A stretch of DNA of 64,000 nt, from the NCBI GenBank assembly GCA_022495995.1, contig JAFEMH010003625.1, forward strand, positions 1 to 64,000, given 5' to 3'. Source of the stretch: Adenophora triphylla var. japonica. Its lineage: Eukaryota > Streptophyta > Magnoliopsida > Asterales > Campanulaceae. Made by a program: the position numbers and the translations under genes. The notes below the pieces were generated by a model. That model saw only the letters and a program-made list of their open reading frames with translations. It ran no database searches and was not told the origin of the DNA. Positions 6,018-63,904 of this stretch are shown one piece after another. Numbering within the stretch: the first letter of the stretch is position 1; each line of letters begins with the position of its first letter.

Positions 6018-6057
6018 TCCGCGCGGACATGTTTGACATTTCCAGAGGCCTATAAAT
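6018..6057 (+). promoter_or_regulatory. LTR promoter: TCCGCGCGGA palindrome and TATA box
   Basis: A perfect 10-bp palindrome TCCGCGCGGA (6018-6027) lies 24 bp before TATAAATT (6051). The palindrome and TATA box are both conserved in the opposite LTR at 27313-27357, although the sequence between them differs. Promoter function is inferred. Confidence 0.6.
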
Positions 6058-7378
6058 TGAACCCTCCTCTCTCGCCTACACAACACAAATCACTCACAAA
6101 GAATAAAGACATTTGGCGAAAAATAGAGAGAAAACAAAGTGGGAATTCACTTGAATTGCCACCATTTTCTCTCAATCTTTCCCAAATCTCACTCACTCAC
6201 AAACACTTCAAAACACTCTCATACATACTCTCATACATACACCAATCCAAGCTCAAATCACCCCTTAGGAGGAGGATTAGAGAGAAAACATAGAGGACTT
6301 CATTGTTTATCTACTTGTTTTTTCTTTAACCAATTCAAATCATCAACCCTAAACACTTTCAAGCCCTAAACACATTCAAGCCTTTGAATCCATTCAAACA
6401 CAAAACACAAGGAAGATAGGTATAACCTCCCTCTCCTTACCCTAAAATTCATCCATGCATGCATTTTCAAACTCCAAAATGTAGTTTGTTCATCTTCTTT
6501 CTTAGATCCAAGAAGATCACCATGGAAGTTCATGTCCATGGATGATCTTCTACAAGGATCAACATTATTTTCAAATTATTCTTACTTTCTTACAAAGAAA
6601 ACACATTTTCAAAACCCTAAAAATCATTTTTCATACACCAAATCTCATTTTCAAAGGATAAAATTCCCCTTCCCAAGCAAATGAAATGCTTAGTCCTAAT
6701 GTACCCCAAGGATGGTTTGATATAGTTGATTCACCACTAAAATGTATAGTGATCACTAATCAAAACCTAGGGAAATGGGGACAAGCATGGATGCCAAACC
6801 CCTTTAAAATCATGTTTTCCTTCTTGAGAAGTTGCTGTCCAGTAGCAATTTTCTAAGACCCCAGTCCATGGTCTAATTTTTTGGACACAGATAAACTTGG
6901 AATTTGGTGTTGACTACAAAACACTTTTTGTAACCAACATCCATAGATTTCCATATATATTTTTACTTTATTTTTTGCGTGAGTAAAACTCCCTTTTTCA
7001 AATTTTCCTTTAAAAGGTCAGTTCATCAGTCTCTGGAGGTCCAGATTTCACATCTGAGATTTCCAGAAGGTTTTGGGTTCTCAAATCATCTCCAAAATGA
7101 AAAGTTCTTTTACAGAAACCTTAGTTAAGGTGTTTTGAACATTTTTCATTCTCGGACTTTTCCCAGATTTTTGAGTTTTCAAGCCCTAAAGTCCATTTCA
7201 AAATCAAGTGTCCACTGCCTTTTTCATTCTGGCAGAAATGGTTTTCAACTTCCAAAAATCTTTTGAGTACCAAATCTCAACCCAAAAATCACACCAAAAA
7301 TCATGGGATCTGTCCAAAGTCTAATAAAGAATTCCCAATTTTTACTTTCCTCAGTTTCAACTTATTTTGGCCAAAGTA

Positions 7379-7401
7379 ACACACACACACACACACACAC
7401 A
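7379..7401 (+). repeat. (CA)n microsatellite in LTR
   Basis: About eleven CA units. The orthologous site in the other LTR (25972-25998) is (TG)n on the plus strand. Confidence 0.95.
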
Positions 7402-7546
7402 AACAAATGGTTTTTTAGCTTGGAAGACTCGTTTTACGAGGCATTCCAGGTGCACACTAACGTACTTCCCGGCGTGTAACGTGACCTACGAACCCAAATC
7501 TCTAACCTCGGGCATTTTTCAAAGTTTTGGCCCTTAAAACAAAAAT

Positions 7547-7564
7547 GGCGTGGCGACTCCGTTT
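7547..7564 (+). other. Primer-site-like TGGCGACTCCG inside the LTR end
   Basis: TGGCGACTCCG (7551-7561) matches 11 nt of the real primer site seen in element II (25723-25733). An equivalent copy is present in every Tat-type LTR of this window. Confidence 0.6.
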
Positions 7565-7716
7565 GATTTCAAAAATCGGGTACATCACAGACGGGCCTGA
7601 GAGAGTTTCCCGATTCTTTAATGGCATCGGCGCCGGAGGCCTCATGACTCGAGGGCTATCTCGTTTCTGCTTCTCCTTCCTCGATCATCGCTACCATTTC
7701 TTTGACCGAGCTGAAA

Positions 7717-8160
7717 TCAATCGGGTCCGGCACCTGGATCTCTTCCCCGAATAAGCTGGCATAATCGGACCATCCCAATCATCCGAAAAGACTTCGTGGC
7801 TTTGGCTTTCGGCACGGTCAATTCAAACTCGGGTTTAGGACCTTCTGGGCGTGAGGAATTGTGGTTGTGAGCTTCTCGGAAATGTTCCACTAGGCTTGGC
7901 ACGCCTTTGAAAGTGTACTCACTCTTGATGGTAGTGGTAGCCCCGGGTATCTTGGGTAGGTCCAGAAACATTCTACGGACCGGGTTAGCTTTTGCTCCCT
8001 AAACTTGTTAAGGCTATCCCGTAGCTTCGGCCACCCTTCGTAAGAGTGGGCTCATGGTGTTACCCGGTTGTGTGGGACCCTTTACAAAGTAGTCGGCCAA
8101 ATTAGGACTCGAAGGGAGAGATTTAGGGTCGTCGACCGGGACCCTTCCCGTGATAGCTTC
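7717..8160 (-). pseudogene. Element II protease-RT linker, decayed
   Basis: The stretch encodes an 84-residue open frame (7717-7971) plus adjoining fragments in a second frame. The peptide is polar and has no recognised fold. It sits downstream of the G-patch, where Tat polyproteins carry a poorly conserved linker before reverse transcriptase. Stops and shifts separate it from the G-patch frame. The assignment rests on position only. Confidence 0.4.
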
Positions 8161-8197
8161 AAATCTTTTTCCTTTTGCAGTGTCTAATGAGGAGGCC

Positions 8198-8960
8198 TCA
8201 TATCCCGTGCCGTGGCGAGTTTTCTCGTCCTTTCACCTCGATAAGTTTGTGAGTTCCTTGTTGGTGTTTCCCTAGACCGAGGCCAGGTAGATAGCTCATC
8301 TTTCTCATCATTTTCAAGACCGGAGGGATTTTATCACGGGTGATTGTCAGATCTATGTTGCAAACTTGGGCCTTTGGAGGCTCGACCGTGAAGCCCGTTA
8401 GCGTGAGACCTTCCTCGTCATGTTTGATTTCCAGAATAGGTATTCCACTGTATCCGTGCCCTCCAAGGTGACTAAATCCCCATAAATGGTTGTCGAGTCC
8501 CCATTCGAGATGAATTTCACACACCGGTGGAGGCTTGAGGCGACCCCCTTGACTCCGATGCAGCCAAGGTCTTCCCAATAAGGCATTAAAAGTGATCGGG
8601 ATGTCAATAACCTGGAATTCCACAGTATCAATTTCTGCCCAAACCAGAGGTCCAAAGTAGCAACTCCAAGGACTCGCTCGAGATGTCGAGTCGTAAGCTT
8701 TGACCGTGAGGGAGGAAGGTTTTAAGTCCGTGGACTTGATGTCAAGCAGGCTCATGATCTTTGCCGGAAGAATGTTCATTCCGACCCATTATCAACCAGA
8801 CCCGAGGGAGGCGTCGTTCATCCAATTGGACTGTGATTGAAGAGAGGCTTGTTATGATCAGCCCCAAATTGAGGGAGGTCGAGATCTCGTGAAAGTGATT
8901 ATGTTCCCGTAGTGGATGTTTCCAATCACCGTACCACGTCATCGGGAGTAGCATCAATAG
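8198..8960 (-). pseudogene. Element II aspartic protease and G-patch, frameshifted
   Basis: The active-site region LVDNGSE lies near 8790-8810 and is followed by NILP in a shifted frame. Next come retropepsin-like strands ending in FNALLGRPWLHR (near 8570-8610). After about 90 residues comes a glycine-rich G-patch segment, MSYLPGLGLGKHQQGT (8240-8310). Protease followed by a G-patch is the arrangement also seen in element C at 50015-50650. At least two frame changes break the reading frame, so no functional product is expected. In the family this enzyme cleaves the Gag-Pol polyprotein; the role of the G-patch is unknown. Confidence 0.7.
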
Positions 8961-8999
8961 GGACCAAGGTGCGGGCTAGGCTTTCTTCCGCCTTTAGCT

Positions 9000-12130: not shown

Positions 12131-13525
12131 TGTTGGGTTTTACGGGTCCATGCGCAGCGGAATTAAGCATTAAAACATAAAACCCAAGAAGCCCTAAGAT
12201 CCGTTCTATACGATTAAATTGAATTGCTATGAGATAGAATTTACCAACCTAAATTGCTTTCCGGTCTTGAGCTATCGAACGGATAATTATGTGATTCGTA
12301 ATCACAAACTTTTGATCTTCAAATCTTCGAATCTTCAACTCCTTTGGATCTTCAGATTTGAACTCTAGGTCTTTGATTTGTTTGAACAAAACTAAGACCC
12401 TCTTTTGGTAATCCACACAAATATGAATGTCGAGAACAATTCTCGGGTTGGGAATTGCTAGATTCCTAAAACTTATGGAAGAATATTGAGAGGACTTTTG
12501 ATTGCGAATTTCTATTGAAAAATTCGGCTAGGGAATTAGGTCCGATTGCACTCACATATTTATACTACAATAGTATGAATATGTCTCCTAATCGTATTAG
12601 GAGAACAGTGCCGTCAAACCGCGTAGGGCTTGATATGTCGCGCGGTATATTAAGCCATTGGCTTAATATGTCGCGCGGTATATATAGCCGATACGTAAAC
12701 TCTCAACCATTCTTCCTCCGGTTTAACCAATTCATTCTATTTGTGTGTGACCCAATAGGATTGTATTATGTTGGCAATGAGTCCGATCATATCGGCCCTC
12801 ATAAGACATAAGCGGACTCTAGCAAGCCATTATGTCTACCCAAATAACACAACGTAAGAGTTCACGTTTCCAATGGTACACTTTCATTTATCCCTTTGTC
12901 TCACGATGTTATATTGAACACAAGTCATGGTCCACGTCAACTTGTATTTGTTCAATGCTTTCTCGATCTTGAGTATAATGATAGTCCAATCATATTGGGG
13001 TGTGGCCACACGCTTTCATCATTATCACTCATTGAGGGGCCCAAGCAAAACATCTCTCTTTCGAGGGACAAATTCCATCTTGACTTATCATCCTTCCCAT
13101 CATGAATCCGATCATGCCAAAGATAGCCTTTATAGATATCGTGTTAAGATACCGTTTGACTAAAATCAAACATAACTTTCATCATGTGTAAAGTCATGAT
13201 AATCTCAGTCTAGGGACTAAATGAAGTGCCCATATGAGATTTAATTATGACATTTGACCATGACATAAATCTCATACGGGTCAAGTCCAAGCTTACTTGT
13301 TCTCTCGACAAGTACCCATAATTTCAATGTGCATCTCTATGCATATAATCATCATATGATTATCCATTGACAATTATACTAATTATTCTCTTAATAATCA
13401 GGGACGTAGATTATTACAATAAATATGCAAACTATATAATAATCAAATAATAAACATAAACGATAAAGATGATACATAACGGTTTTCAGTTAAACATAAC
13501 TAAAGCCTAGGGCATTACACCAACA
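12131..13525 (-). repeat. 3' LTR of element B
   Basis: This is 1395 bp, nearly identical to 18894-20286. The main differences by eye are at 12535-12550, a short indel near 12608 and several single bases. Confidence 0.95.
12556..12681 (-). promoter_or_regulatory. Element B LTR promoter: palindrome pair and TATA box
   Basis: On the minus strand a TATA-like GTATAAATAT (12556-12565) is preceded by two copies of a CGCGCG-centred near-palindrome (plus strand TGTCGCGCGGTA at 12636 and 12669). The copies are 33 bp apart, with complementary TATTAAGCC/GGCTTAATA between them. The right LTR has the same layout (19319-19328; 19397 and 19430). Confidence 0.6.
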
Positions 13526-18554: not shown

Positions 18555-18649
18555 TGTCGCGTGACAACATCAGCCAGAGGCTTGATATGTCGCGCGACGT
18601 AACAGGCCAGATAACCTGAATTCCTCATGGCTCATCATGTCGCGCGACT
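18555..18649 (-). promoter_or_regulatory. TGTCGCGYGACA palindrome cluster in element B leader
   Basis: Three copies of the LTR palindrome at 18555, 18588 and 18638 (spacing 33 and 50). The first two keep the same 33-bp spacing as in the LTRs. Confidence 0.6.
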
Positions 18650-18893: not shown

Positions 18894-20286
18894 TGTTGGG
18901 TTTTACGGGTCCATGCGCAGCGGAATTAAGCATTAAAACATAAAACCCAAGAAGCCCTAAGATCCGTTCTATACGATTAAATTGAATTGCTATGAGATAG
19001 AATTTACCAACCTAAATTGCTTTCCGGTCTTGAGCTATCGAACGGATAATTATGTGATTCGTAATCACAAACTTTTGATCTTCAAATCTTCGAATCTTCA
19101 ACTCCTTTGGATCTTCAGATTTGAACTCTAGGTCTTTGATTTGTTTGAACAAAACTAAGACCCTCTTTTGGTAATCCACACAAATATGAATGTCGAGAAC
19201 AATTCTCGGGTTGGGAATTGCTAGATTCCTAAAACTTATGGAAGAATATTGAGAGGACTTTTGATTGTGAATTTCTATTGAAAAATTTGGCTAGGGAATT
19301 AGGTCTGACAGACCTCACATATTTATACTACAATAGTATGAATATGTCTCCTAATCGTATTAGGAGAACAGCCGTCAAACCGCGTAGGGCTTGATATGTC
19401 GCGCGGTATATTAAGCCATTGGCTTAATATGTCGCGCGGTATATATAGCCGGATACGTAAAACTCTCAACCATTCTTCCTCCGGTTTAACCAATTCATTC
19501 TATTTGTGTGTGACCCAATAGGATTGTATTATGTTGGCAATGAGTCCGATCATATCGGCCCTCATAAGACATAAGCGGACTCTAGCAAGCCATTATGTCT
19601 ACCCAAATAACACAACGTAAGAGTTCACGTTTCCAATGGTACACTTTCATTTATCCCTTTGTCTCACGATGTTATATTGAACACAAGTCATGGTCCACGT
19701 CAACTTGTATTTGTTCAATGCTTTCTCGATCTTGAGTATAATGATAGTCCAATCATATTGGGGTGTGGCCACACGCTTTCATCATTATCACTCATTGAGG
19801 GGCCCAAGCAAAACATCTCTCTTTCGAGGGACAAATTCCATCTTGACTTATCATCCTTCCCATCATGAATCCGATCATGCCAAAGATAGCCTTTATAGAT
19901 ATCGTGTTAAGATACCGTTTGACTAAAATCAAACATAACTTTCATCATGTGTAAAGTCATGATAATCTCAGGTCTAGGGACTAAATGAAGTGACCATATG
20001 AGATTTAATTATGACATTTGACCATGACATAAATCTCATACGGGTCAAGTCCAGTTACTTGTTCTCTGACAAGTACCCATAATTTCAATGTGCATCTCTA
20101 TGCATATAATCATCATATGATTATCCATTGACAATTATACTAATTATTCTCTTAATAATCAGGGACGTAGATTATTACAATAAATATGCAAACTATATAA
20201 TAATCAAATAATAAACATAAACGATAAAGATGATACATAACGGTTTTCAGTTAAACATAACTAAAGCCTAGGGCATTACACCAACA
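18894..20286 (-). repeat. 5' LTR of element B
   Basis: 1393 bp, TGTTGG to CCAACA, followed by the GAGGT duplication at 20287-20291. Confidence 0.95.
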
Positions 20287-22503: not shown

Positions 22504-22640
22504 GGCACGACTCGTGCCCCTTGGCACGACTCGTGCCTTTTCTCCCCATGTTACTCAGAACGACTTGGACCATTGTTCACGACTCGTTGTCACGAGTGGC
22601 AAGAAGGGTACGACTCGTGCTCCTTGGCACGACTCGTGCC
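22504..22640. promoter_or_regulatory. GGCACGACTCGTGCC palindrome pairs in solo LTR E
   Basis: The 15-bp sequence GGCACGACTCGTGCC (perfect arms around A/T) occurs at 22504 and 22523. A degenerate copy at 22607 is followed by a perfect copy at 22626. Both pairs are spaced 19 bp. A further damaged pair lies near 22576-22600. No TATA box was identified next to them. Confidence 0.65.
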
Positions 22641-40530: not shown

Positions 40531-40593
40531 GAAAGAAGTCATGTCGACGATAGAAAAGACATCATTCTGAACATCGGGATGGTCGGGCCGCAC

Positions 40594-44101: not shown

Positions 44102-44196
44102 TCTCGCGCGAGATAAGGTGTCTCGCACGAGACACGCTAGTCAGGCAGAGATCTCTTCTTTTCGGAATAGGATTTTGTCAGTTTTCCCTATAAAAT
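44102..44196 (+). promoter_or_regulatory. Promoter of accessory gene 2: palindrome pair and TATA box
   Basis: A perfect TCTCGCGCGAGA (44102-44113) and TCTCGCACGAGA (44121-44132), spaced 19 bp, lie upstream of CCTATAAAATC (44187-44197). The likely start codon is about 100 bp further on (44296). Confidence 0.65.
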
Positions 44197-44295
44197 CACC
44201 CTGTAGTCCGGCCAGATACCTCATTCTAGCCTTTCAAACTCTAGAGATATTTTGTTGGGGTGAAACTCTTGTCTTCTTCTTCAACCCTACGATCC

Positions 44296-45812
44296 ATGGC
44301 TTCCAAGGAGATTGCCCCAACGTCCATGATTGTCGATGATTTTTCTCTATCGTCTGAAGTGATTGCATCTTTCAAGCAAGCATCAAGGGATTTCGTGAGG
44401 TCGTTTCGCAACCGATCTCGTAATAAATTCATAGCAGAATTCGGATTCAGAATCCTTTTTACTTTGAAGAACCTCCAACCGGATTGGAGTCTTTTGCAGG
44501 GTGCTGCTCGATTTTGGGATCCCTCTATTCATCTTTTCAATTTTTCTTTGAATGAGATGGTGCCTACTGTGGAGGAATTTGCCATTATCTTGGATATGCC
44601 TTTGACTGGTGAGATTGCTGTTCCTAAGTACAATAGGAATCATTCAGAGACTTTGAATGAATTGTTAGGGATCCCCCTTGATACTTGCTATGGGTTGGTT
44701 TACCGCAAGTGGGTTGATTGCTCTTCTTTTCCGGGACGCTTCAGCGGTGCTTCAGATGATGACGCTTTTCATGTCCATAAACGGAACTTTCTGGATCTTT
44801 TCCTTTTCGGAGATGTTCTATTTACATGTAGGGGCGGCTTGGTCGACTCCCAACTTGTGGAAATTGTTCTGCAGGCTAGAAAACGTTCTAGGAACATTAT
44901 TCCGCTAATCTTGGGTGAGACCTTGCATGGTCTTGACAAGCTGCATAGGACCGGTGTCATGACTCAAGGGAGTCCTCTTCTGTTGACCATTTGGCTTAGG
45001 GAGCATCTCATTTTGGTAGGTCCCCCGTTGGAATATTCCCCTTTCACATATCATACGCGAAAGTTATTGATCAAGGATCTTTCAGTGGATGAATGGGCTG
45101 AGTTGATTGCGAAGACTGAAACTGCTGACATTCTTTGGTGTCCACCTTATTGGAGGTTGAACAAGTATGTTGCCAATACCGAGGGTTTTGACAGGGTTGT
45201 TCTTCCGGGTTTTGCGATTCCTCCTTTTATTTCCCCAAGCGGGTGCTCCGTCAGCTTGGTCAGCAGCAGGAGACTTATCTCTTCGAAGGAGTTTCTCGTG
45301 AAGTGTCTTATATTGGTTTAGAGTTTGCGCAGGCGCTAGCTCAAGCATGGGGTGAAGGAAATAGTCGGGATCGCTGGTCGAACCTTCGGACTTTTAATGC
45401 AAGCATCTTCTTGTCTGATAAGTACTTGGATTGGTTTCTTCATACCGGTCACCCTAGTGCAGAGAAGATTGATGATCTGCGGCTTTCATTGCTAGGAGAT
45501 TCTTTTGTAGCTAGTAGTATTTTGCGAAGGAGCGAGGCTCAATCTGATCCTGCTAATGTGCGAACTGATCCAACTCAGGATTTTCTTGATGGGGATTGGT
45601 ACGAGAGGCGAGGCAAAGGGATGCCTGGAAAGACGCAAGCTCTAGATAGACCCCATGTCTTCAAGAGGCTCTCGGGATCTGTTTTTAATCGTCTTGATTC
45701 TGTTTTTGATCGCCTCGAGGGATGCCCTGCTTCGAGGGGCTCAAAGCGCAATGAGGATCACGACGACGGTGGAGACCATGTCCGCCGGCCTACCAAGTTA
45801 ATGAAAGGCTAG
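44296..45812 (+). pseudogene. Accessory gene 2: DUF7745-like retroelement protein, frameshifted
   Basis: The ATG at 44296 (context ATCCATGGCT) is preferred over 44260. About 310 residues run open and include LLQGAARFWDPSIHLFNFSL and MVPTVEEFAIILDMPLTGEI, resembling the DUF7745 family of plant retroelement proteins. At the CCCC run of 45232-45236 one base shifts the frame. The continuation to 45812 includes VSREVSYIGLEFAQALAQAW and a basic C-terminus. Function is unknown in the family. It is intronless as far as can be seen and lies antisense, downstream of integrase. A sequencing or assembly indel in the C run is possible. Confidence 0.7.
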
Positions 45813-46004
45813 ATCTTTAGGAGTACCAAGAGATTGCTTTGATAGATCGATAGTTTTTTTTTTTTTTATTAGTATTTTTTTCAAGATTGCTAGCTTAGCA
45901 AATTAGTCGTTGTGGTTAGGATTTCCCTTTTGTCATTAATGAAAATGCATTTGATTAATAAAGGACAAAAGTAGATTTATTTATTAGATTAGACCGAACC
46001 TGAA

Positions 46005-46063
46005 GGCTGCCTACGTTCCTCTTTTACAGCAATTAAATAAGAGGCTCAGGTCTAACATAGTTC
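46005..46063 (-). other. CTACG...CGTAG hairpin motif, copy 5
   Basis: Minus strand: outer arms CTATG/CGTAG (one G-U pair), inner 6-bp stem CCTCTT/AAGAGG, ending GGCAGCC. Confidence 0.65.
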
Positions 46064-46107
46064 ATTTTTGAGTAAAGGACAAAATACGGCTCCGTGCAGA
46101 GGGGTAA

Positions 46108-46119
46108 TCTCGCGCGAGA
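46108..46119. promoter_or_regulatory. Single TCTCGCGCGAGA palindrome
   Basis: A perfect 12-bp palindrome between the convergent integrase and accessory gene 2. No clear partner at 19 bp; the neighbouring sequence is a CT/T-rich run. Confidence 0.7.
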
Positions 46120-46303
46120 TAAGCCTCTCTCTTTTTTTTTTTTTTTTTTTTTTCATGCACACCCTTACTTTTGCCTAGACCGCCCCTTCGGGTTTTCAAT
46201 CTAGCGGGCTTCTTTTCTTGTGCTAGCTCTAATTTTTGCCTAGGTCGTCCTTTCCGGGATTTTCAACCTAGCGAGCGATTTCTTTTTTTTTTAGGAGGGC
46301 AAG

Positions 46304-47329
46304 TCACGCGAAGTACTTCTTGAGCTTGTCCATGTTGACCGGCTTCGGTAGTTGATCCCCGTCTAAGTCCACCAGCTGAAGGGCTCCCCCAGAGAATATC
46401 TTCTTCACAATGTAGGGCCCTATCCATCTTGGTCCCCACTTGCCTAGCGAGTTGAAAGGTCCAGGACGGTGCTCACGGAGAACCAGGTCACCTACTCTGA
46501 TGTTCCTCGTCTTGACCTTTTTGTTGAAAGCTCTTGCCATTCTTCTTTGGTAAGCTTGAGTATGTTCGGCTGCTTTCAACCTTCTTTCGTCCAACAGGGC
46601 CAACTCTTTGTATCTGCTTCCTAGCCAGTCGACCTCGTTCACTTGGTTTTCTAGGAGAACCCGTAGCGATGGTATTTCCAATTCTATCGGTAAGACAGCC
46701 TCCATTCCGAACGCGAGGGCATAGGGAGTCTCTCCTGTGGCTGTTCGGACTGAAGTGCGGTATCCCCACAGTGCGAAAGGTAGCTTGTCGGGCCAGTCTT
46801 TTCCAGTGACGGCCATTTTTCTGATGATAGTCTCGATTGTTTTGTTCGCGGCTTCAACTGCTCCGTTTGTTTGAGGCCTGTAAGGAGACGACTTGTGCCT
46901 TGTGATTTTGTATTCGGTTAGTAGGCGATCGGTTTCCTTCTCGAAGTGGGACCCATTATCGGATATCATCTCTTGCGGAACCCCATACCGGCAGATGATG
47001 TTGTGCTTGATGAATTCTGCGACCTTTCTGGCATTCAGAACTTTATAGGAGGTGGCCTCAACCCACTTAGTGAAGTAGTCGATGGCTACTAGGACAAAGC
47101 AGTGTCCGTTGGCTCCTATGGGTGTGACCTTTCCAATCACGTCTATCCCCCATGTAGAGAACGGCCAAGGAGAAGTCATAGGGTACAGCAAGGAGGGTGG
47201 TGCATGCTGAAGATTGGCGTGTATCTGACACTTGTGGCACTTCTTGACCATTTTGGTACAGTCGGCTTCCATGGTCAGCCAAAAGTACCCTTGTCTGATG
47301 ATCTTTTTGGCGAGCATATTTCCGCTCAT
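46304..47329 (-). CDS. Element C integrase
   Basis: 341 open codons. The zinc-binding region holds CHKCQIH. The catalytic core contains WGIDVIGK (first aspartate), MISDNGSHFE (second aspartate) and NGAVEAANKTIE (glutamate), with the usual spacing. The C-terminal part has WGPRWIGPYIVKKIFSGGAL, typical of gypsy integrases. Integrase inserts element DNA into the chromosome. The first codons overlap the preceding RNase H frame in a different phase (47329-47365), which indicates a shift that would prevent joining to the upstream polyprotein. The domain itself looks complete. Confidence 0.9.
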   Translation of the reverse strand: MSGNMLAKKIIRQGYFWLTMEADCTKMVKKCHKCQIHANLQHAPPSLLYPMTSPWPFSTWGIDVIGKVTPIGANGHCFVLVAIDYFTKWVEATSYKVLNARKVAEFIKHNIICRYGVPQEMISDNGSHFEKETDRLLTEYKITRHKSSPYRPQTNGAVEAANKTIETIIRKMAVTGKDWPDKLPFALWGYRTSVRTATGETPYALAFGMEAVLPIELEIPSLRVLLENQVNEVDWLGSRYKELALLDERRLKAAEHTQAYQRRMARAFNKKVKTRNIRVGDLVLREHRPGPFNSLGKWGPRWIGPYIVKKIFSGGALQLVDLDGDQLPKPVNMDKLKKYFA

Positions 47330-47364
47330 ATGGGTTCCACATATGCCTTGATGAACGTGGTCTA

Positions 47365-48093
47365 TTATTTCTTGGGCCTCTTCCTCGGTGGCACAAAGGA
47401 GGTTTCCTTGGGAATGTTTCTTGAATAGGCGGCCAGCGGTGTGACGTAATTAGCGGCCAACCTCTTAAGGGCGATCTGAGTCTTCGGGTCTGTCTCAGGT
47501 GGGATGGTTCCATCTAGGATGAAATGCCAAATGTCATGGTACCATGGTTTTTCCTCAGAGTTCCCAACAGTGGCACATCCGGATAACCACTTGTCTTTGT
47601 AGTCATGGAGATCTATAACGGCGCAGTATGCAGGAGTTGCACGTCGTGTTATTTTGAAGGGTTTGACTGCTTTTCCTTTAGGGATTTCGACCAATGAAGC
47701 AAGTGTGGCCAATGCATCCGCAAACCGATTTTTGTCTCTGGGGAGGTAGTGGAACGAGACATCTTGGAATTGTTGCACCAACTCTTGGAGATGGGCATTG
47801 TATCTTTGAAGGGTTGGATCTTGGACCCTCCACTTCTTCAATGTCTGATTGATGATCAATTGGGAATCCCCGAATACCTCGAGTTCAGTCACGTTGCATT
47901 CTAGGGCTGCCTCAAGTCCCGCTATGCAAGCTTCGTATTCTGCGGTGTTGTTAGTGGCGTCAAAGTCAAGACGTATTGCCAGTGGAGTATAGATGTCGTT
48001 AGGGTCTACTAATAACATTCCAATGACGAACCCTCTCATGTTGGCTGCGCCATCGAAAAATAATTGCCACTTATTTTCTTCTTCTATACTCAT
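47365..48093 (-). pseudogene. Element C second RNase H (Tat-specific)
   Basis: WQLFFDGAANMRG carries the first aspartate; NNTAEYEACIAGLEAALEC the glutamate; LEVFGDSQLIINQ the second aspartate; and YLPRDKNRFADALATLAS the C-terminal aspartate region. This second, archaeal-type RNase H after the gypsy RNase H is a hallmark of the Tat lineage. The frame is offset from both neighbours, so it is not joined to RT or integrase in this copy. Confidence 0.85.
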
Positions 48094-48450
48094 GAGTCCT
48101 CATCAGGGAATCGCGGGTCTTCCCCCTTCACTTCGTCGCAAGGAAATTCGGCCAACTGATCTGCGAATACACTCCCCCTGACGGATTTCTGAGTGACGTA
48201 AGTGATATCATATCCCGCGAGCATGAAGTACCATTTGGCCAGTCTCGAAGACAAATTTGATTTGTCTAGGATATATTTCAGTGGATCCATTTTTGCAATG
48301 AGACGGACCGGGAAGGCTTCCATATAGTGCTTCAGCCTTTGTGATACCCAAACAAGAGCAGCACAAGATTTGTCGAGTGGAGAGTAGTTGATTTCGCTGC
48401 CTTGGAATCTGCGACTGACGAAAAGGATGGCATTCTTTGTGTGGGAGGCT
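48090..48450 (-). pseudogene. Element C first RNase H, C-terminal part
   Basis: After an in-frame TAG at about 48450, coding continues with RLKHYMEAFPVRLIAKMDPL and RLAKWYFMLAGYDITYVTQK, typical of the gypsy RNase H tail. It ends in a TGA at 48090. The stop and the following shift separate it from RT and from the second RNase H. Confidence 0.75.
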
Positions 48451-48452
48451 GG

Positions 48453-49946
48453 CTATTCTTGAGCGAGCATAGCCCCTAATGCGTTGTCTGTAACTGTGAG
48501 GTATAGCTTCAAGGGCTTCTCCTTGTGCGGTGGAACCAGGATAGGTGGGGAAGTCAAGTAGTGCTTAACTTCCTCGAATGCTTCTTGACATTCTTCGGTC
48601 CACTCTTGAGGTGCGTTTTTCTTAAGTAGCTTGAAGATAGGATCGCACATTGTAGTCAGTTGATTGATGAATCGACTGATGTATTGAAGCCTGCCCATGA
48701 ATCCCTTTACTTCTTTCTGTGTTCTAGGTGGAGGCATGTCTGTGATGGCTTTTATCTTGGCGGGATCTGCTTCTATGCCACGCTCTGTGACCATGTACCC
48801 CAAGACTTTCCCTTTGACCACTCCGAATGAGCATTTGGCGGGGTTGAGCCTCATCTTGTGCTGTCTCAGTCGATTGAAGAATTTTCTGAGATCTCTGAAG
48901 TGTTGACCATCTGTCCCTTTTGAGTGAATAATCATGTCGTCCACATATACCTCTATTTCCTTGTGGATCATGTCATGAAATAGTGTCGTGACTGCTCTTT
49001 GATAAGTAGCCCCAGCGTTCTTGAGACCAAACGGCATGACCGTGTAATAGAACGTTCCCCAAGGTGTGATGAATGCTGTTTTGTGCTGATCTTCTTCTGC
49101 CATGAGAATTTGGTTATACCCTGCGAAACCGTCGACGAATGAGCGGACTTCGTATGCAGCACTGGCATCAACCAACATGTCTATGTTCGGTAGCGGGAAG
49201 TCATCTTTAGGGGATGCCTTGTTCAAGTCTCTGAAATCAACACAGACTCGTATTTTCCCGTTTGACTTGGCTACTTGCACTGTGTTTGCTAACCATTCCG
49301 GATACTCAATCACTTTGATGAACCCTACATTCAATAGCTTCATGATTTCCTCTTTCACTTGCATTGACCATTCCGGCTTGATTCTGCGTAGTTTCTGCTT
49401 GACTGGCTTGGCGTTGGGTAGCAGTGGTATTTTGTGCTCTACAACTGACTGATTCAACCCAGGCATATCTTTGTAGGACCAAGCGAAGACGTCTACATAT
49501 TCTCTAAGGAGCTGCGTCAAGGTTTCTCTGTCTTCCCCCTTGAAGAAGCTGTCGATCTTTGTTTCTCTGGGGTCTTCCGTTGTCCCAAGATTAACCGTTT
49601 GCATTTCCTCGTCGCCAACAGGGCCATTCTTTCCACAACGACCTACTTGCTTAGCTAATTCTTTTAAGATTTGTTCGTTTTCTTGATCTATCTCATCGTA
49701 TGATTCATTATTAACGTGTTCGTTATATTGATTGTTATTAGTTAATTCATCATTCACGATGTTAGCAATCTCAGGGTACTCGAAAAGATCAAAGTTTTCA
49801 TTAAGGAAGTAAGGGAATACATGTTCAGCCACTGCCTCGATTTCCTCTTGAGTGAGTCCATCGGAGGTGGAGCCTGCTTCTAATGTAAAAGCTACGGGGC
49901 CTATCTTCCTGTGGGGATGGGGAGTGCAACCAAGCTCTTTGATCAT
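48453..49946 (-). pseudogene. Element C reverse transcriptase
   Basis: 497 codons. Key segments are KSNGKIRVCVDFRDLNKASP and DDFPLPNID (palm), MPFGLKNAGATYQRA, the catalytic EVYVDDMIIHSK (about 48930-48955), and GFMGRLQYISRFI in the connection. The start of RNase H follows (KLYLTVTDNALGAMLAQE) before the TAG at 48450. It copies RNA of the element into DNA. The RT core looks intact, but the C-terminal RNase H is cut off by the stop. The N-terminal 150 residues are acidic linker. Confidence 0.9.
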
Positions 49947-50014
49947 GAAGTCTTCATCAATAACTGGTCCTCCAGTGACGTGCCGCTTAGAATTGGCTCA
50001 TCACATTTACTGTA

Positions 50015-50650
50015 TCAGCCTTGTGTAGTCAGTAGTTGGAGCATCCCTTTGGATATTGCATGAATCTGGCTGTCTTCTAACCGGCACAGGTCTTGGAACT
50101 GTCGCAGCATGTCTTCTCCCAACACAAAGTCCCATTCACTTGTCATTTCTGCCTTCGTGCCCCACAAATCATTGGGGATTAGTGGGACGGATTCGGTTTC
50201 ATCTGGAGAAGCATCGCAATCGCTGAAGATTTCAAAGCCCGGTTGGCGCTTTCCTTTATCATCAGTCCATGGTTCTGAAAAGATAAAGTAGGGAATACTT
50301 TCCCCTTCTCGGACAAAGTAGCCATTGAGTGTCTTTCGATATGGCTTGAGGTTGTCATTCTTAGGCTTTAGGTTGTCGTAGCCTTTGTAGGTGGTTCCTT
50401 CCCACTTGATTTGAGTGAAGCCCCACTCTTCTTCGTCATCTTCATCGTGGATGGAGATGATGTATCCTAGGCCATGCTTTGTGTGAGGCTGGGGGACCGG
50501 TGGTGGTTCCGTTGTCCCTTGTAAGTGCTTTCCAAGCCCCAGTCCAGGAAAGTACCCTTTTGCTAGCATCATTCTCCAGACAGGAAGGCTTCCGGAAAAC
50601 CAAAGTGCCTTGGAGTAGTCATTTTCGTTGCAAGTTTCTATGATATTCAC
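50015..50650 (-). CDS. Element C G-patch-containing Gag-Pol linker
   Basis: 211 codons. A G-patch-like segment, LAKGYFPGLGLGKHLQGTT, is followed by an acidic region (DEDDEEEWGF), a YIIS strand and WTDDKGKRQPGFEIFSD. It ends just before RT. In element II a G-patch also follows protease, so this is the same module. No D-T/S-G protease motif is visible upstream in element C. The module's role is unknown; G-patches in general bind nucleic acid or helicases. Confidence 0.65.
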   Translation of the reverse strand: MNIIETCNENDYSKALWFSGSLPVWRMMLAKGYFPGLGLGKHLQGTTEPPPVPQPHTKHGLGYIISIHDEDDEEEWGFTQIKWEGTTYKGYDNLKPKNDNLKPYRKTLNGYFVREGESIPYFIFSEPWTDDKGKRQPGFEIFSDCDASPDETESVPLIPNDLWGTKAEMTSEWDFVLGEDMLRQFQDLCRLEDSQIHAISKGMLQLLTTQG

Positions 50651-50847
50651 AGTGCTTTCTTTCTCGATCTCAAAGAATTAATCAGAATTGAAAAGGGAAA
50701 TATTGACTAACTATTATTGAAAAACAGACTTGATACTCTTGCCCACAAATGAAGTCTTTGGGCAAGTAGTACCCGACTAAGCTAAACTAGACTACTAACC
50801 GTTTCTTTTGCAACTAAAAGTAAATAACTGAAAGAAAAAGAGACCCC

Positions 50848-51660
50848 TCATTTGTTTGAACTCATCCAAACTATTCCACCACTTGGGCAAACTCTGATGG
50901 CGTCGTTGTCAATCAAGTCTTGGACTGCATTCTTCAGGTTGAAACAATCGTTGGTGTGATGGCCATAGCATTGATGGTAGAAGCAATAGAGGTGTGGAGA
51001 TCGACCTTCCCTCTTAGGTTGGTAGCCTTCCATTGGTTTCATCTTTCCATCCTTGTGAATGCTTCTGAAGAAATGACCGAGAGTGATATTTCCGATGTCG
51101 GTGAAAACCCTTCCCTTCCTTCGCTTAGCCATTTGATTGTGGAGGTCTCGAATGTGGTTCTCATAGTGTTGCACGAAGACGTTGTGGCGAGACTGATATT
51201 CTTCCTCCATTTGCTCTTTGAGGTCACGGTAGAGAGTATTGAGGAAATACTTGACCCTCTCATCAATGTCATCTTCAATGTGGGCTTCAAGGTTGATGCA
51301 CTTTTGGGTCATGGTTTCGAGTTCACTCTTGACTTCCTCAAGCTCTTCAATCAGCATCTTCGTCTTTTCAGCTTGGATGGATTCTTCCATGTGATGCCAC
51401 GAGTCATTGTCGTTAATTTGCTGCAGGGCTTTGGCAAGTTGAGTTTTGATATCACTTAGCTCCTCTTGTACGGACGATCGTCCACTGTCGGAGTCACTCT
51501 CCATCTTTCGGAAATCCCTAGCAATGCGGGTAGAAGGCAAATCAAAGGCTTCTCTCCAACCCTCAACATGCTCCATTTCAGCGACAAGGGCCTTGGTCAA
51601 GTCTTGCAAAGTGTGTTGTTCAAGGCATTCCTTGGTCATGACATGCTTTCCGGTAGACAT
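50848..51660 (-). CDS. Element C short Gag-like protein with coiled coil and zinc motif
   Basis: 270 codons from ATG at 51660. Residues about 60-180 are heptad-rich and charged (EELSDIKTQLAKALQQI, then MLIEELEEVKSELETMTQ), predicting a coiled coil. The C-terminal part carries YCFYHQCYGHHTNDCFNLKN, the Tat-type C-x2-H-x4-H-x4-C zinc motif. The usual retrotransposon Gag core (with FYKRW-like motifs, as in element II) was not seen. So this is either a reduced Gag or one whose core was replaced. It would normally bind element RNA through the zinc motif. Confidence 0.7.
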   Translation of the reverse strand: MSTGKHVMTKECLEQHTLQDLTKALVAEMEHVEGWREAFDLPSTRIARDFRKMESDSDSGRSSVQEELSDIKTQLAKALQQINDNDSWHHMEESIQAEKTKMLIEELEEVKSELETMTQKCINLEAHIEDDIDERVKYFLNTLYRDLKEQMEEEYQSRHNVFVQHYENHIRDLHNQMAKRRKGRVFTDIGNITLGHFFRSIHKDGKMKPMEGYQPKREGRSPHLYCFYHQCYGHHTNDCFNLKNAVQDLIDNDAIRVCPSGGIVWMSSNK

Positions 51661-51789
51661 TGTGTTGGGAGTCTTGAAGTTGAGTAGCTTCGAAAACCGA
51701 TGAAGAGATCCGGATATCGTGATCTAGCCCCAACGAGTCGGAAGCGTGCTCAAAATGGCTCAGGCTCGTATTCAAGAAACGAAGCATTA

Positions 51790-51820
51790 TCCCGCGCGAG
51801 ATATGTTGTCCCGCGCGAGA
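51790..51820. promoter_or_regulatory. TCCCGCGCGAGA pair upstream of gag
   Basis: Identical copies at 51790-51801 and 51809-51820, spaced 19 bp, about 130 bp before the gag ATG. No TATA box was found between them and gag. Confidence 0.65.
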
Positions 51821-52451
51821 TAACCACACGGAAAGTCGATTTTTTATTTAGACCTAATTTTTTGTCGGAACGGAAAGTCCGTTTTGAGGGGTTTCTAAGG
51901 CCTTTATCAGAACCTAACGACTAAGCAATCAATCCGATTTTTGTAAGACAAAGCCATGTAAGATTGTTTTTTTTTGAAGGATTATATGCATATTTTTTTT
52001 TGAAGGGACATCCGAAAGGGTCATTCCAAAGGGACTTTTTCCGAAGGGACTTTTCCGAATTCTTTTTTTTTTATTTTCAATTTTGCATGGCTTTGTTTTG
52101 GTCAAAAACAAGAAAAGATCACCGAGTCAAAACCGATCGGTCACGGAGTGATCCTAAAAAGGTCAATCTACATGAGAATGTGGCGATGCAGGGCTGGAAG
52201 GCTAGGCTCCCCGCGATATGACAATCTAAGTGGATTGAATACGCGGAGTGGGATTGTCCAACTTCGGAGAGACCGGCGACTAGGTGGTTACCGTCATCCG
52301 TCCTTAGTGTGGGTCCCGGGTTGATAGAGGGTATGCAGTGCAATGACAGTTATAATATGAGTGCACGTGTGTGATAGTCAATCTAGGTGATAGAGTAAAA
52401 TAGAGAGTTTTTTTTAAAGCAAAAGAAAAACAGATAGTGGCCGCACCAAGT

Positions 52452-52500
52452 GGTTGCCTACGTTTCTCCTAAATTAGGAAGACTCAGGCCGTCGTAGTTC
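52452..52500 (-). other. CTACG...CGTAG hairpin motif, copy 6
   Basis: Minus strand: GAACTACGACGGCCTGA, inner stem TTCCTAA/TTAGGAGAA with one bulge, then CGTAGGCAACC. Confidence 0.65.
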
Positions 52501-52783
52501 CACATAACGAGAGGGAAAGAGAGATAAATAATTCAATTTACAACTCCCGAATCCCCAATGGACCGGACTTTAATTAAATAAAACCCAATCGCACGCAGTT
52601 TATAAATAATAATCAATTATTTAAAGGAAACGAAGGTTCGAGTTCTACACCTTAAGGGAGGCCTTAAGATGCGAGAACTCTGCAGATAATGAATTCTGGG
52701 ATCCCCCTTGCGTGTTCGACCCTCGTCTTGGACCACGGGATGAACAGGAGAAACCAGAAAACAACCAGATTGCCGAAGCCATA

Positions 52784-52815
52784 TCTCGCGCGAGATATGA
52801 TATCTCGCCGCGAGA
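52784..52815. promoter_or_regulatory. TCTCGCGCGAGA pair near the primer site
   Basis: A perfect 12-bp palindrome at 52784-52795 and a 13-bp variant TCTCGCCGCGAGA at 52803-52815, spaced 19 bp. Confidence 0.65.
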
Positions 52816-52911
52816 CATGCTTCATCTGAGAGCAAAAGAAATTCGAATTTACTAAATTTTTGAAAACCTCTCTTTTAATTTTGATGCAAGTTTAAGCCTC
52901 TTAATTTTAAG

Positions 52912-52930
52912 TCCCCAGCAGAGTCGCCAC
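52912..52930 (-). other. Primer-binding site of element C
   Basis: The minus strand reads TGGCGACTCTGCTGGGGAC, one base after the LTR end, matching the Tat/Ogre tRNA-Arg type site. Confidence 0.85.
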
Positions 52931-53940
52931 TGTAGCGTCGTGAGGAAAAAGAAGGAATAATGATTTTATCTCTTCCTTTTCATTTTTGAGTCGCCACCTA
53001 TATTATTCGGTTGGAGAAAATAGGAAAACCATTTTGAAAAAGATTTGGGTTCGGGGCTTAGGTTATGAAATGGGTAGGTCAAGGAGGATCCATTTCACCC
53101 AATCTGGAGATCGATCTTGCTAAAGAAAAGAGAGGTTTTCAAAAGAAGGGAAAAACGATTTTTTTTTTAATATTATAAACAAAGGTCCATTTAACGGGGT
53201 TAAACGGAATGTAGGATCGATTTCTTCAAGACCGTCTCCATGATTTGGAGAGGCTCTAGGCCGATCCTAGATTCTATGGACTTATACCACTCTAACAATC
53301 AATTAGAAAAGGATTTAGGAATTACCTTGCGTGAGGTGATTTGGGCAGAGTTTCGACTCAAGTTTAGAGTCGTCTCTTGACACGGACAGAGTTTCGCCTC
53401 GGTCCTTGACTTGGAGCTTGATGCTTGTTTATCAACAAGGTCGACAAACAAACTATGAGGTGAGTTTTTAGGGTGATTTTGTAGGATTCTTTCGAGGAGA
53501 GAAACCAACAAAATGTGTGTGTTGTGAAAATTCTTCGACCTCTTGAACCTTGGAAGTCACCAAGTATTTATAGGGATTGGGGAAGTGTTGAAGATGAGAT
53601 CAAACACTTCAAGATGGTTCCAGACTCCCAATTCTATTGGTTGGCCGGAGAGATAAAGTTTTATCCCGAAAAGAGGTTGAAATCGACGAGGGAACTGTCG
53701 TCTGCAATCTGCAGAGGGGGAATATCTCGCGCGAGACACGCTTTCTCGCGGCGAGATATTGCTCCTGTGGACAGTTTTGTCCTTTCCTCGCTATCTCGTA
53801 TGCAGTTTAGTCCCAAACTAACGGTTGTTAGTCAAAACTTAACTAAACATGACGAAATGGTGGATTTCTACTTTTTGACTCAAAGCGAGACTTAGAGTGG
53901 TATAAGTATGTTCCGATGTGTTCAGAATGGGGTGTCTACA
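52931..53940 (-). repeat. 5' LTR of element C
   Basis: 1010 bp, TGTAGC to TCTACA, followed by CCTAT. It contains a primer-site-like GTGGCGACTC (plus-strand GAGTCGCCAC at 52988-52997), 67 bp from the genuine site. Confidence 0.95.
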
Positions 53941-53945
53941 CCTAT

Positions 53946-55285: not shown

Positions 55286-55360
55286 GCTGCACGGCTGCAT
55301 TAGGAGGGAACTCCTGGCCGCACGGCTTCATTGGCGATTTCCAGACTGCCTATAAATAGA
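55286..55360 (+). promoter_or_regulatory. Promoter of solo LTR D
   Basis: GCTGCACGGCTGC (55286) and GGCCGCACGGCTTC (55316), with GCACGGCT cores spaced 31 bp, lie upstream of CCTATAAATAGAGG (55350-55363). Confidence 0.6.
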
Positions 55361-62678: not shown

Positions 62679-62686
62679 TTGGACCC

Positions 62687-63060
62687 ACTCCGCCAAATTT
62701 TGATTGTTTTACTTGGTCCTCACCAGATACAGAAAATAACTTTTTGTGGGGTTATACGAAGAACCATATTATAACCACCTCCTAGGTTAGGCTGGTGCAA
62801 GAAATTCCAAACGGAATGAAAAAATAAAAAATTATGATTTATAAAACTCAATTTGTAGTTGGGTTATGGTGGTTGATCCTTTCCAATCATTAATTTTATT
62901 TTTATCATCGTTAGTTACGTTGAAAAGTATATGTTCAATTATTAAGATTATAATTCTGGAGATGGATATTGACAAAATCAATGAAATGAAAGATTTCTTC
63001 ATTCATATTTATCTCTATCTATATCTATTATTAACTTATTGATATTATTATTTATGCCAA
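62687..63060. other. AT-rich intergenic sequence
   Basis: Nothing recognisable seen. Confidence 0.5.
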
Positions 63061-63067
63061 AATCTAA

Positions 63068-63113
63068 GGAGAAACGTGTTTCTCCATAATTTATGGAGAA
63101 ACGGGTTTTTTCC
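63068..63113 (+). promoter_or_regulatory. GGAGAAACGTGTTTCTCC palindrome pair (left)
   Basis: The perfect 18-bp palindrome at 63068-63085 and a degenerate copy at 63095 are spaced 27 bp with ATAATTTAT between. An equivalent pair lies at 63861-63904. Confidence 0.65.
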
Positions 63114-63473
63114 ATCTCTACATCTACATCGTCACACAACAATCACGTGTCGCGGAACGATCCACGCCAACCGTCGGCGAGACCGTACGTACCGGTACCA
63201 GTTGCTCCAGAAAACCTTCCCATTGATTACTCTGTTTTTATCGCCATCATCTTTGGAGTCGCCGGTGCCATGTTCAGGGTTCGTCCTCTCTCTTTCTCTC
63301 TCTAAATATATAATTTGTCAGCTCGTTCTTCAAATCACCAAACCCCAATTTCATCCTATTTCATAATTACAGTACAAGCTTGGCTCGTGGCTTGCACTTA
63401 TATTCTGTGCCCAGTCGCTAGCTAATATGAGTAATATGGAGACTGATTTGAAGCAGATCTCCTCCGGTTTAAT
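63093..63473 (+). pseudogene. Asterix-like (PAT complex subunit) gene exons, partial
   Basis: Exon 1, ending at 63278, encodes SRNDPRQPSARPYVPVP and PIDYSVFIAIIFGVAGAMFR. Exon 2 (63373-63473, after TTACAG) encodes YKLGSWLALIFCAQSLANMS and ETDLKQISSGL before the donor GTAAAG. These match the conserved Asterix/WDR83OS family, a small ER membrane protein that helps insert multi-pass proteins. The codon where the family normally starts is GTG (63147), not ATG. The only upstream in-frame ATG, 63093, lies in the palindrome pair. The third exon was not found by 64000. This may be a real gene running off the window or a captured fragment. Confidence 0.7.
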
Positions 63474-63475
63474 GT

Positions 63476-63852
63476 AAAGTTTCTGGATATCACTTTTTTC
63501 AAAGAGTTCTGGATATTCAGAACCTTTTGAAAGGATATCCAGAACTTTTTGAAAGGATATCCAGAAATTTATTAAATGTTTCTGGATATCATTTTGTAAG
63601 TTTCTGGATATCATTTTGTAAATTTCTGGATATCATTTTGTATTTTCTGGATATCATTTTGTAATTTCTGGATATCATTTTGTAAGTTTCTGGATATCAT
63701 TTTGTATGTTTCTGGATATCATTTTGTAAGTTTCTGGATATCATTTTGTAATTTCTGGATATCATTTTGTAATTTCTGGATATCATTTTGTAAATTTCTG
63801 GATATCATTTTGTAAGTTTCTGAATATCCAGAACCTTTGAAACTGATATCCA
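63476..63852 (+). repeat. TTTCTGGATATCATTTTGTA minisatellite
   Basis: About eleven copies of a 22-24 bp unit at 63570-63830. Inverted GGATATCCAGAA words at both edges (63485-63570 and 63820-63855) give a large self-complementary block. Confidence 0.9.
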
Positions 63853-63860
63853 GAATATTT

Positions 63861-63904
63861 GGAAAAACACGTTTCTCCATAACTTATGGAGAAACGCGTT
63901 TCTC
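63861..63904 (+). promoter_or_regulatory. GGAGAAACGCGTTTCTC palindrome pair (right)
   Basis: GGAAAAACACGTTTCTCC (63861) and GGAGAAACGCGTTTCTC (63888), spaced 27 bp, in the same orientation as the left pair. Confidence 0.65.

What the first reader, a model, noticed from the sequence alone, without database searches (positions are those of the whole stretch)
6018..63904. Paired short CpG-rich palindromes with fixed spacing in at least six unrelated element types
Seen directly: TCTCGCGCGAGA pairs (19-20 bp apart) in element C; GGCACGACTCGTGCC pairs (19 bp) in solo LTR E; TGGGCGGTCGCCCA pairs (20-22 bp) in the Ivana-like copia and the hAT; TGTCGCGCGRYA pairs (33 bp) in copia B; GCACGGC pairs (31 bp) in LTR D; GGAGAAACGYGTTTCTCC pairs (27 bp) around the Asterix exons. 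Wherever a TATA box is visible, the pair lies upstream of it. Each family has its own sequence but the architecture is shared. Spacing near two helical turns would place two dimeric binding sites on one DNA face. Known parallel: tandem palindromic BII boxes upstream of TATA in tobacco Tnt1. A general architecture across copia, gypsy and hAT is, to my knowledge, not described.
Basis: partly seen in the sequence, partly recalled or inferred. Interest (0 to 1): 0.9.

Follow-up and report, generated by a model that had tools for sequence, protein, structure and literature searches.

The report
Paired palindromes in plant transposon promoters
Several unrelated jumping genes in this plant DNA carry short, CG-rich mirror-image sequences in closely spaced pairs, several of them near start sites, probably docking sites for gene-switch proteins; the general idea was known from one retrotransposon group, but the sharing of sites between unrelated elements looks new.

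Summary
The pairs are real. All 16 CGCGCG hexamers in the window are YCGCGCGR and sit in exact or near-palindromic sites of families A, B and C (1.7-1.9 expected). A copia and a hAT share TGGGCGACCGCCCA. Element C, a Tat/Ogre-like gypsy, is clearest: five separate pairs, each with a 7-bp spacer and 19-19.5 bp between centres, in the U3, the leader, upstream of gag, and 18 and 57 bp upstream of TATA boxes of two antisense Plant-Mobile-Domain ORFs. Palindromes are better conserved than spacers or flanks. Most likely they are docking sites for a dimeric DNA-binding protein, host or element-encoded. The idea is not undescribed: Bousios et al. 2010 reported repeated CpG palindromes upstream of TATA, and of ENV, in Sireviruses, and called them Sirevirus-specific. 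New here: non-Sirevirus elements, constant pairing in C, one module at sense and antisense promoters, and cores shared across superfamilies. Apart from A and each element's own LTRs, no second copy and no other species could be examined; the genome search did not complete.

The parts
53725..53756 (-). C 5' LTR U3 module: TCTCGCGCGAGA, 7-bp spacer, 13-bp palindrome; 153 bp upstream of CTATAAATACT
40293..40324 (-). same module in C 3' LTR (second palindrome has one CpG to TpG change)
52784..52815 (-). C leader module, just inside the 5' LTR/PBS; a TATAAA lies 180 bp downstream, no promoter evident
51790..51820 (-). C gag-proximal module, two TCCCGCGCGAGA (plus strand), upstream of the gag ORF; no TATAAA
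46108..46119 (.). C half-destroyed module (one perfect palindrome; partner position is a CT/T tract) between the 3' ends of pol and aORF2
44102..44132 (+). C aORF2 promoter module; TATAAA 57 bp downstream, first in-frame ATG 44296
44296..45318 (+). C antisense ORF2, DUF7745 (above cut-off) / Plant Mobile Domain (just below cut-off)
41295..41326 (+). C aORF1 promoter module (one arm of each palindrome altered); TATAAA 18 bp downstream, ATG of the next open frame 41497
41955..42855 (+). C antisense ORF1, broken over frames, Plant Mobile Domain pieces (below Pfam's curated cut-off)
39499..53940 (-). element C, Tat/Ogre-like gypsy; LTRs 39499-40506 and 52931-53940 (97.7%), RT/RNaseH/integrase 46307-49997
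12636..12680 (-). B 3' LTR: two 30-bp palindromes with TGTCGCGCGGTA cores, 33 bp apart; TATAAATATG 72 bp downstream
19397..19441 (-). B 5' LTR: same pair; TATAAATATG 70 bp downstream
18555..18649 (-). B leader: three more copies of the 30-bp unit, 33 and 50 bp apart; a TATAAA lies 97 bp downstream, no promoter evident
6018..6027 (+). A copy 1: single TCCGCGCGGA, 24 bp upstream of TATAAATTG
27348..27357 (-). A copy 2: single TCCGCGCGGA, 24 bp upstream of TATAAATTG
29575..29734 (-). same element 3' LTR: two pairs plus one single (one 22-bp unit fewer than the 5' LTR)
33075..33191 (+). hAT 3' subterminal region: four TGGGCGACCGCCCA-type palindromes in two pairs, 22 and 32.5 bp, downstream of the transposase
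22504..22640 (.). E: two GGCACGACTCGTGCC pairs (19 bp each; one palindrome has two changes); element not bounded
63068..63112 (.). G pair 1, upstream of Asterix-like exons (gene name by recall); long hairpin
63861..63905 (.). G pair 2, downstream of the second exon
55289..55326 (+). D: GCACGGC direct repeat, not palindromic; TATAAATAG 25 bp downstream

Best explanation
The CG-rich palindromes, singly or in pairs, are transposon cis-regulatory sites read as DNA. Each palindrome fits one dimer of a DNA-binding protein, and in C, E, the copia and the first hAT pair two dimers would sit about two helical turns apart. At least two recognition classes occur: YCGCGCGR (gypsy-like A and C, copia B) and TGGGCGACCGCCCA (copia and hAT). 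Each class serves unrelated elements, so the readers are probably few and host-encoded; in C the element's own antisense-encoded PMD proteins are an alternative reader. The CpGs would make binding sensitive to silencing methylation. Shown: positions, spacing, conservation within elements, shared cores, TATA boxes. Inferred: protein binding, dimers, activation, methylation sensitivity.
For: All 16 CGCGCG in 64 kb are YCGCGCGR and lie in exact or near-palindromic sites of A, B or C; Markov models of order 1 and 3 give means of 1.9 (maximum 7 in 100 runs) and 1.7 (maximum 4 in 60 runs) CGCGCG, and about 0.6 YCGCGCGR. C: five separate modules, all with 7-bp spacers; mean identity 0.93 and 0.88 in the palindromes, 0.59 in the spacer, 0.41 and 0.29 in the 25-bp flanks; palindrome against spacer p = 0.0066 by column permutation. 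80-bp flanks of the C sites: 18 of 20 comparisons (LTR against LTR left out, each LTR counted) do not exceed the null 95% point of 22. B: five 30-bp units with cores and left arms alike but 15-bp flanks at 0.27 and 0.32. The A core is kept in two 88%-identical copies. C aORF1 and aORF2 each show module, TATAAA, ATG in order. CpG o/e of module against rest of LTR: 2.0 v 0.90 in B, 2.35 v 0.83 in C, 2.0 v 0.40 in A1; modules were picked for their CpG, so this only describes them.
Against: Only one window. Apart from A, and the two LTRs of each element, no second copy and no other species could be examined, so selection is inferred from repeats within an element. C's leader and gag modules, B's leader units, E, G and the hAT sites are not upstream of an evident promoter. 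Spacings differ (B 33, G 27, second hAT pair 32.5 bp). No perfect 12-bp palindromes pair up. The copia palindromes are hardly CpG-enriched by o/e (0.85 v 0.70). Two of 20 C flank comparisons exceed the null 95% point (23 and 25 v 22), the larger because the 46108 site shares a short left flank with the U3, and spacers share letters, so some modules are probably old duplicates. No known factor was identified.
Confidence: 0.57

Rival explanations
1. Mutational by-product: CpG palindromes form hairpins, replication slips on them, and tandem copies appear without being selected for.
For: The two copia LTRs differ by exactly one 22-bp palindrome-plus-spacer unit. C modules share some spacer letters, so they are likely related by duplication. 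G is one long hairpin.
Against: Duplication alone predicts spacers as conserved as palindromes; in C they are not, and methylated CpG should decay faster. It does not explain modules upstream of two antisense-ORF TATA boxes or one core in B, C and A.
Confidence: 0.17
2. RNA-level element: tandem palindromes fold as one hairpin in the transcript and serve genome packaging/dimerisation, or are siRNA hotspots as reported for maize Sirevirus palindromes.
For: Eight of nine modules fold far better than shuffles (z -3.6 to -7.8). B and C both carry extra copies in the transcribed leader. Maize palindrome regions attract small RNAs (passages).
Against: Any tandem palindrome folds so. The ninth, C aORF1, does not (z -1.4). 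Modules upstream of the aORF TATA boxes would not be in the aORF mRNAs. By hand inspection, symmetry-breaking changes keep G-U pairing in the sense RNA for some sites (C gag) but not others (B U3, B leader).
Confidence: 0.13
3. The palindromes are shared because a roughly 40-50-bp module moves between elements by recombination or as a tiny hairpin element; its spread, not its regulation, explains the sharing.
For: hAT and copia share an exact 18-mer and align over 48 columns with some similarity beyond the palindromes.
Against: C modules have largely unrelated far flanks; B and C units differ outside the core. Target duplications at modules were not searched for.
Confidence: 0.08

Closest known systems
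Sirevirus repeated motif (RM) boxes (Bousios et al. 2010, PMC2829016; passages and section 9 seen)
   Same: Short CpG-rich palindromes repeated in the LTR upstream of TATA, element-specific letters with a shared core, extra copies upstream of an internal gene (ENV there, antisense ORFs here).
   Different: Core there is CGG-CCG (in all but Tnd-1) and 8-32 copies define CpG islands; here cores are YCGCGCGR or GGGCG-CGCCC, often paired, in gypsy, other copia and hAT. That paper states the RM is absent from classic elements.
VANC targets in VANDAL transposons (PMC5735166, PMC10398659; passages seen)
   Same: Short motifs repeated in the non-coding regions of one element; repeats gained and lost; with VANC6 an unrelated element with the motif also responds.
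   Different: VANDAL encodes VANC with DUF1985/DUF287; 'palindrom' does not occur in PMC5735166; anti-silencing was shown there, nothing is shown here.
Antisense additional ORFs: Grande gene23, Retand TRP28 (PMC7264820 passages; PMC11963269 abstract, passages and discussion)
   Same: Antisense ORFs between pol and 3' LTR; Grande gene23 reported there to have its own promoter; a transcriptional regulatory role is proposed.
   Different: C encodes PMD/DUF7745-type proteins, no TRP28 found, and shows a candidate cis-site common to LTR and aORF promoters, which I did not see in the parts read.
Tobacco Tnt1 BII boxes (recalled; a passage in PMC2829016 mentions only symmetrical box I)
   Same: Repeated U3 activator upstream of TATA (recalled).
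   Different: Sequence and geometry not compared; no primary paper was opened.
Shared palindrome of maize Copia and Helitrons (PMC10760457; passages)
   Same: One palindrome in unrelated superfamilies, as with copia and hAT here.
   Different: Different letters, maize, studied for RNA structure and small RNAs.

Membership tests
Sirevirus RM boxes | palindromic repeated motif in LTR upstream of TATA | tested here: met
   B and C; A has a single palindrome, the copia only TATATAT
Sirevirus RM boxes | CGG-CCG core | tested here: not met
   cores are YCGCGCGR and GGGCG-AC-CGCCC
Sirevirus RM boxes | at least eight copies per element, defining CpG islands | tested here: inconclusive
   counting one LTR plus internal sites, C has 11, B 5; the copia has 5-6 per LTR; CpG islands not computed
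Sirevirus RM boxes | host element is a Sirevirus (copia) | tested here: not met
   for C (gypsy RVT_1/RNaseH/integrase) and the hAT; the copia lineages of B and 'Ivana' were not tested
Tat/Ogre-like gypsy with aORFs (element C) | gypsy pol with antisense ORFs between pol and 3' LTR | tested here: met
   pol 46307-49997 minus; PMD-type ORFs 41955-42855 and 44296-45318 plus
Tat/Ogre-like gypsy with aORFs (element C) | RT falls in the Tat clade by phylogeny | not tested
   RT relatives found, two of the 120 listed named as G-patch proteins; no tree built; the Tat label rests on layout and a recalled PBS type
Tat/Ogre-like gypsy with aORFs (element C) | TRP28 domain in aORF (Retand) | tested here: not met
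   no TRP28 in the ORF pieces scanned; PMD/DUF7745 signal instead
VANDAL/VANC anti-silencing | VANDAL transposon with VANC (DUF1985/DUF287) | tested here: not met
   element C is an LTR element; no such domain in the ORFs scanned
VANDAL/VANC anti-silencing | element protein binds the repeated motif and removes methylation | not testable with these tools
   needs ChIP or EMSA and bisulfite data
Tnt1 BII boxes | tandem activator bound by defence-linked factors (recalled) | not tested
   one search gave no primary Tnt1 LTR paper among 6 listed

The most novel reading that the evidence does not exclude
Element C runs a self-regulating circuit: its antisense-encoded Plant-Mobile-Domain proteins bind the paired YCGCGCGR module at the sense LTR promoter, the leader and their own two promoters, countering silencing of the element in the way VANC does for VANDAL transposons. 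Copia B, which carries the same core and showed no PMD domain in the 3 of its 7 ORFs of 90 aa or more that were scanned, exploits the protein in trans. This would give the unexplained antisense ORFs of Tat-type retrotransposons a function and a target.
Probability: 0.14. Interest if true: 0.88.

Novelty: new variant of a known kind. Interest (0 to 1): 0.56.

Why it matters
The function of the antisense ORFs of Tat-type gypsy elements is described as unknown (PMC7264820, PMC11963269). One paired site at the LTR promoter and at both antisense promoters gives a concrete cis-target to test. Cores shared by gypsy and copia, and by copia and hAT, suggest that unrelated transposons in one genome converge on, or exchange, a few docking sites. 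That would extend the Sirevirus palindrome story beyond Sireviruses, contrary to the 2010 statement that the motif is Sirevirus-specific, and would help predict which silent elements one factor could wake together.

Tried and rejected
Related elements in IMG/VR through the C and copia RT proteins and two RT alignments: no confirmed relatives. Pair patterns: 0 matches for the C pair in viral contigs and for the copia pair in GTDB contigs; neither collection is of plants. Homologues of aORF2 by phmmer: none of 2263 candidates at E <= 0.001; no PDB sequence match; AlphaFold on the single sequence was useless (mean pLDDT 32) and was not searched further. Rfam (gathering scores) and tRNA scans of the window: nothing. 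A literature search for TCTCGCGCGAGA found one bacterial paper (listing only), judged irrelevant.

Considered and rejected: comparing 5' and 3' LTRs for selection, because copies decay neutrally after insertion. Counting D as a palindrome family. Treating plain shuffles as sufficient: direct-repeat-conditioned controls were added. The PMD 'DOWN' motif of MAIL1/MAIN (PMC7156037, passages) as the same motif: its letters are not given in the passages seen. The sense-strand wobble idea: mixed signs, by hand inspection only.

Errors mended on review: the second hAT spacing (29.5, 32.5); a statement that all palindrome changes in C fall in one half (one of six does not). Best-explanation confidence lowered from 0.58 to 0.57 because of the second hAT spacing.

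Rows dropped before counts: one search leaves out the C 3' LTR copy, leaves the half-destroyed 46108 site out of the five-module means, and removes the central base of 3 of 11 palindromes (13-mers). leave out tandem arrays listed by hand from the TRF output. Pfam was run on 40 of the 109 stop-to-stop ORFs of 90 aa or more listed, a piece of an ORF counting as that ORF. No paper was read in full. Bousios 2016 and Gomez-Orte 2013 are known only through citing papers.

Full report
WHAT WAS CHECKED. The window is 64,000 bases of plant DNA; the named best matches of two retroelement proteins are mostly eudicots (Vitis, Cuscuta, Beta and others; lists capped at 120, many rows unnamed).

THE OBSERVATION. 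Spacing, centre to centre: C 19-19.5, E 19, copia 20-22, hAT 22 and 32.5, B 33 (and 50), G 27 bp. Allowing one mismatch, similar 12-bp palindromes within 40 bp form 14 clusters against means of 0-0.2 in shuffles, and 8 against 0 with at least 2 CpG; demanding perfect 12-bp palindromes gives no pair at all. Because real DNA is full of short direct repeats, I also asked how often a direct-repeat locus is palindromic with at least 2 CpG: 19 of 66 against a mean of 5.5, maximum 12 in 500 draws. Ten of the 19 are the sites discussed here. Without the CpG condition the excess is smaller, 36 of 98 against 20.6, maximum 30 in 200 draws. LTR copies inflate both counts. D is a direct repeat and A has one palindrome, so the element types with palindrome pairs are B, C, E, the copia, the hAT and the G pairs, of which E and G could not be assigned to a bounded element.

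SHARED CORES. The window has 16 CGCGCG; all are YCGCGCGR and all lie in exact or near-palindromic sites of A (2), B (6) or C (8). Markov models of order 1 and 3 predict 1.9 and 1.7 CGCGCG and about 0.6 YCGCGCGR. These 16 are not independent, since LTRs come in twos. B and C agree further out: ATATGTCGCGCG at 5 of 6 B sites and ATATCTCGCGCG at 4 of 8 C sites. The copia and the hAT share TGGGCGACCGCCCA, the same way round relative to their coding strands, with an exact 18-base match and a 48-column alignment. So 'each family has its own sequence' fails, and the sharing is the more interesting fact.

ELEMENT C. Pfam places integrase, RNase H and RT on the minus strand at 46307-49997, with a weak G-patch match (just below cut-off) before them, and two plus-strand ORFs with Plant Mobile Domain or DUF7745 signal between pol and the 3' LTR (PMD scores lie below Pfam's curated cut-off, DUF7745 above it). 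This is the antisense-ORF layout described for Tat-type elements; no RT tree was built. Modules sit in the U3 (TATAAA 153 bp downstream), just inside the 5' LTR, upstream of the gag ORF, and 57 and 18 bp upstream of TATAAA boxes that precede the aORF2 and aORF1 start codons at 44296 and 41497 (transcription starts are inferred). A sixth, at 46108, has lost one palindrome. Across the five intact modules the spacer is always 7 bp; palindromes are 0.93 and 0.88 identical, spacers 0.59, flanks 0.41 and 0.29. Spacer letters are not random (A and G recur at positions 2 and 4), so common descent of modules is likely. What needs explaining is that the palindromes outlast their surroundings although CpG usually decays fastest. 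In the 11 pooled palindromes five of six changes fall in the left half and positions 8-12 never vary, too few to lean on.

ELEMENT B. Two 30-bp units in the U3, 70-72 bp upstream of TATAAATATG on the coding strand, and three in the leader. Unit cores and left arms are alike (0.81, 0.78), right arms less so (0.59), and 15-bp flanks are unrelated (0.27, 0.32). A: both copies keep TCCGCGCGGA 24 bp before TATAAATTG while nearby bases differ.

TATA. Of 20 entries tested (LTR copies counted singly, E on both strands), 11 have TATAAA within 200 bp downstream, among them D, which is not palindromic, and the B and C leader sites at 97 and 180 bp, which may be chance. Nine do not: copia (both LTRs), C gag, C 46108, hAT, E (both strands), G (both). 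Random windows: 11.7%. LTR U3 regions hold TATA boxes anyway, so the informative cases are the two antisense ORFs, 2 of 2.

HOW IT PROBABLY WORKS. Best reading: palindromes as dimer sites, often two close together, near sense and antisense promoters, recognised by one of a few proteins. Inferred, not shown: binding, activation, methylation sensitivity. Rivals are slippage (the copia LTRs differ by one 22-bp unit), RNA hairpins (8 of 9 modules fold with z from -3.6 to -7.8, one with -1.4; any tandem palindrome does this) and exchange of a small module between elements.

WHAT IS KNOWN. Bousios et al. 2010 (PMC2829016; passages including the abstract, and section 9) reported palindromic repeated motifs in 13 Sireviruses, all but one with a CGG-CCG core, upstream of TATA and, in ENV-bearing elements, upstream of ENV (77 of 79 linker copies), and called them Sirevirus-specific. 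PMC10760457 (passages) notes one palindrome common to maize Copia elements and Helitrons. VANC work (PMC5735166, PMC10398659; passages) shows element proteins binding repeated motifs, one affecting an unrelated element. On antisense ORFs, PMC7264820 (passages) reports an own promoter for Grande gene23, and PMC11963269 (abstract, passages and discussion) proposes regulatory roles. I saw no report of one palindromic pair at LTR and antisense promoters; that rests on ten answered literature searches of open-licence papers only, and on parts of the papers opened.

VERDICT. A real and non-random feature, partly misdescribed, belonging to a known kind (palindromic promoter repeats of plant LTR elements) but in new hosts and with a sharper layout. 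The lack of independent copies and of a second species is the main weakness.

Noticed in passing
41497-45809: Element C carries two antisense PMD-type ORFs rather than one; the first is broken over frames or contains an intron.
   Followed up: partly
29899-33383: hAT transposon with an 8-bp duplication GAGAAATA at 29891 and 33384, inserted in the pol region of the copia; both ends carry AACCGG-rich palindromic subterminal repeats.
   Followed up: partly
56602-61287: Copia with an uninterrupted 1401-aa open frame and 187-bp repeats 98.9% alike: a young, possibly intact element.
   Followed up: no
7540-7570 and 25780-25830: Family A ends in GTGGCGACTCCG, resembling the primer-binding site beside C's LTR, so A may be a Tat-type gypsy LTR.
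   Followed up: partly
63478-63828: Tandem array of a 22-bp unit (TTTCTGGATATCATTTTGTAA-like) beside Asterix-like exons (name by recall), flanked by the two G palindrome pairs.
   Followed up: no
806-865: A palindrome pair without CpG (CCTCTTATCTTTAGAGGT type), 42 bp apart.
   Followed up: no
17276-17589: Three 105-bp tandem copies, 97% alike, inside copia B.
   Followed up: no
8201-8788: G-patch fragment on the minus strand, probably the remnant of another gypsy element.
   Followed up: no
3056-5209: Cluster of minisatellites, mostly with units of about 30-33 bp.
   Followed up: no
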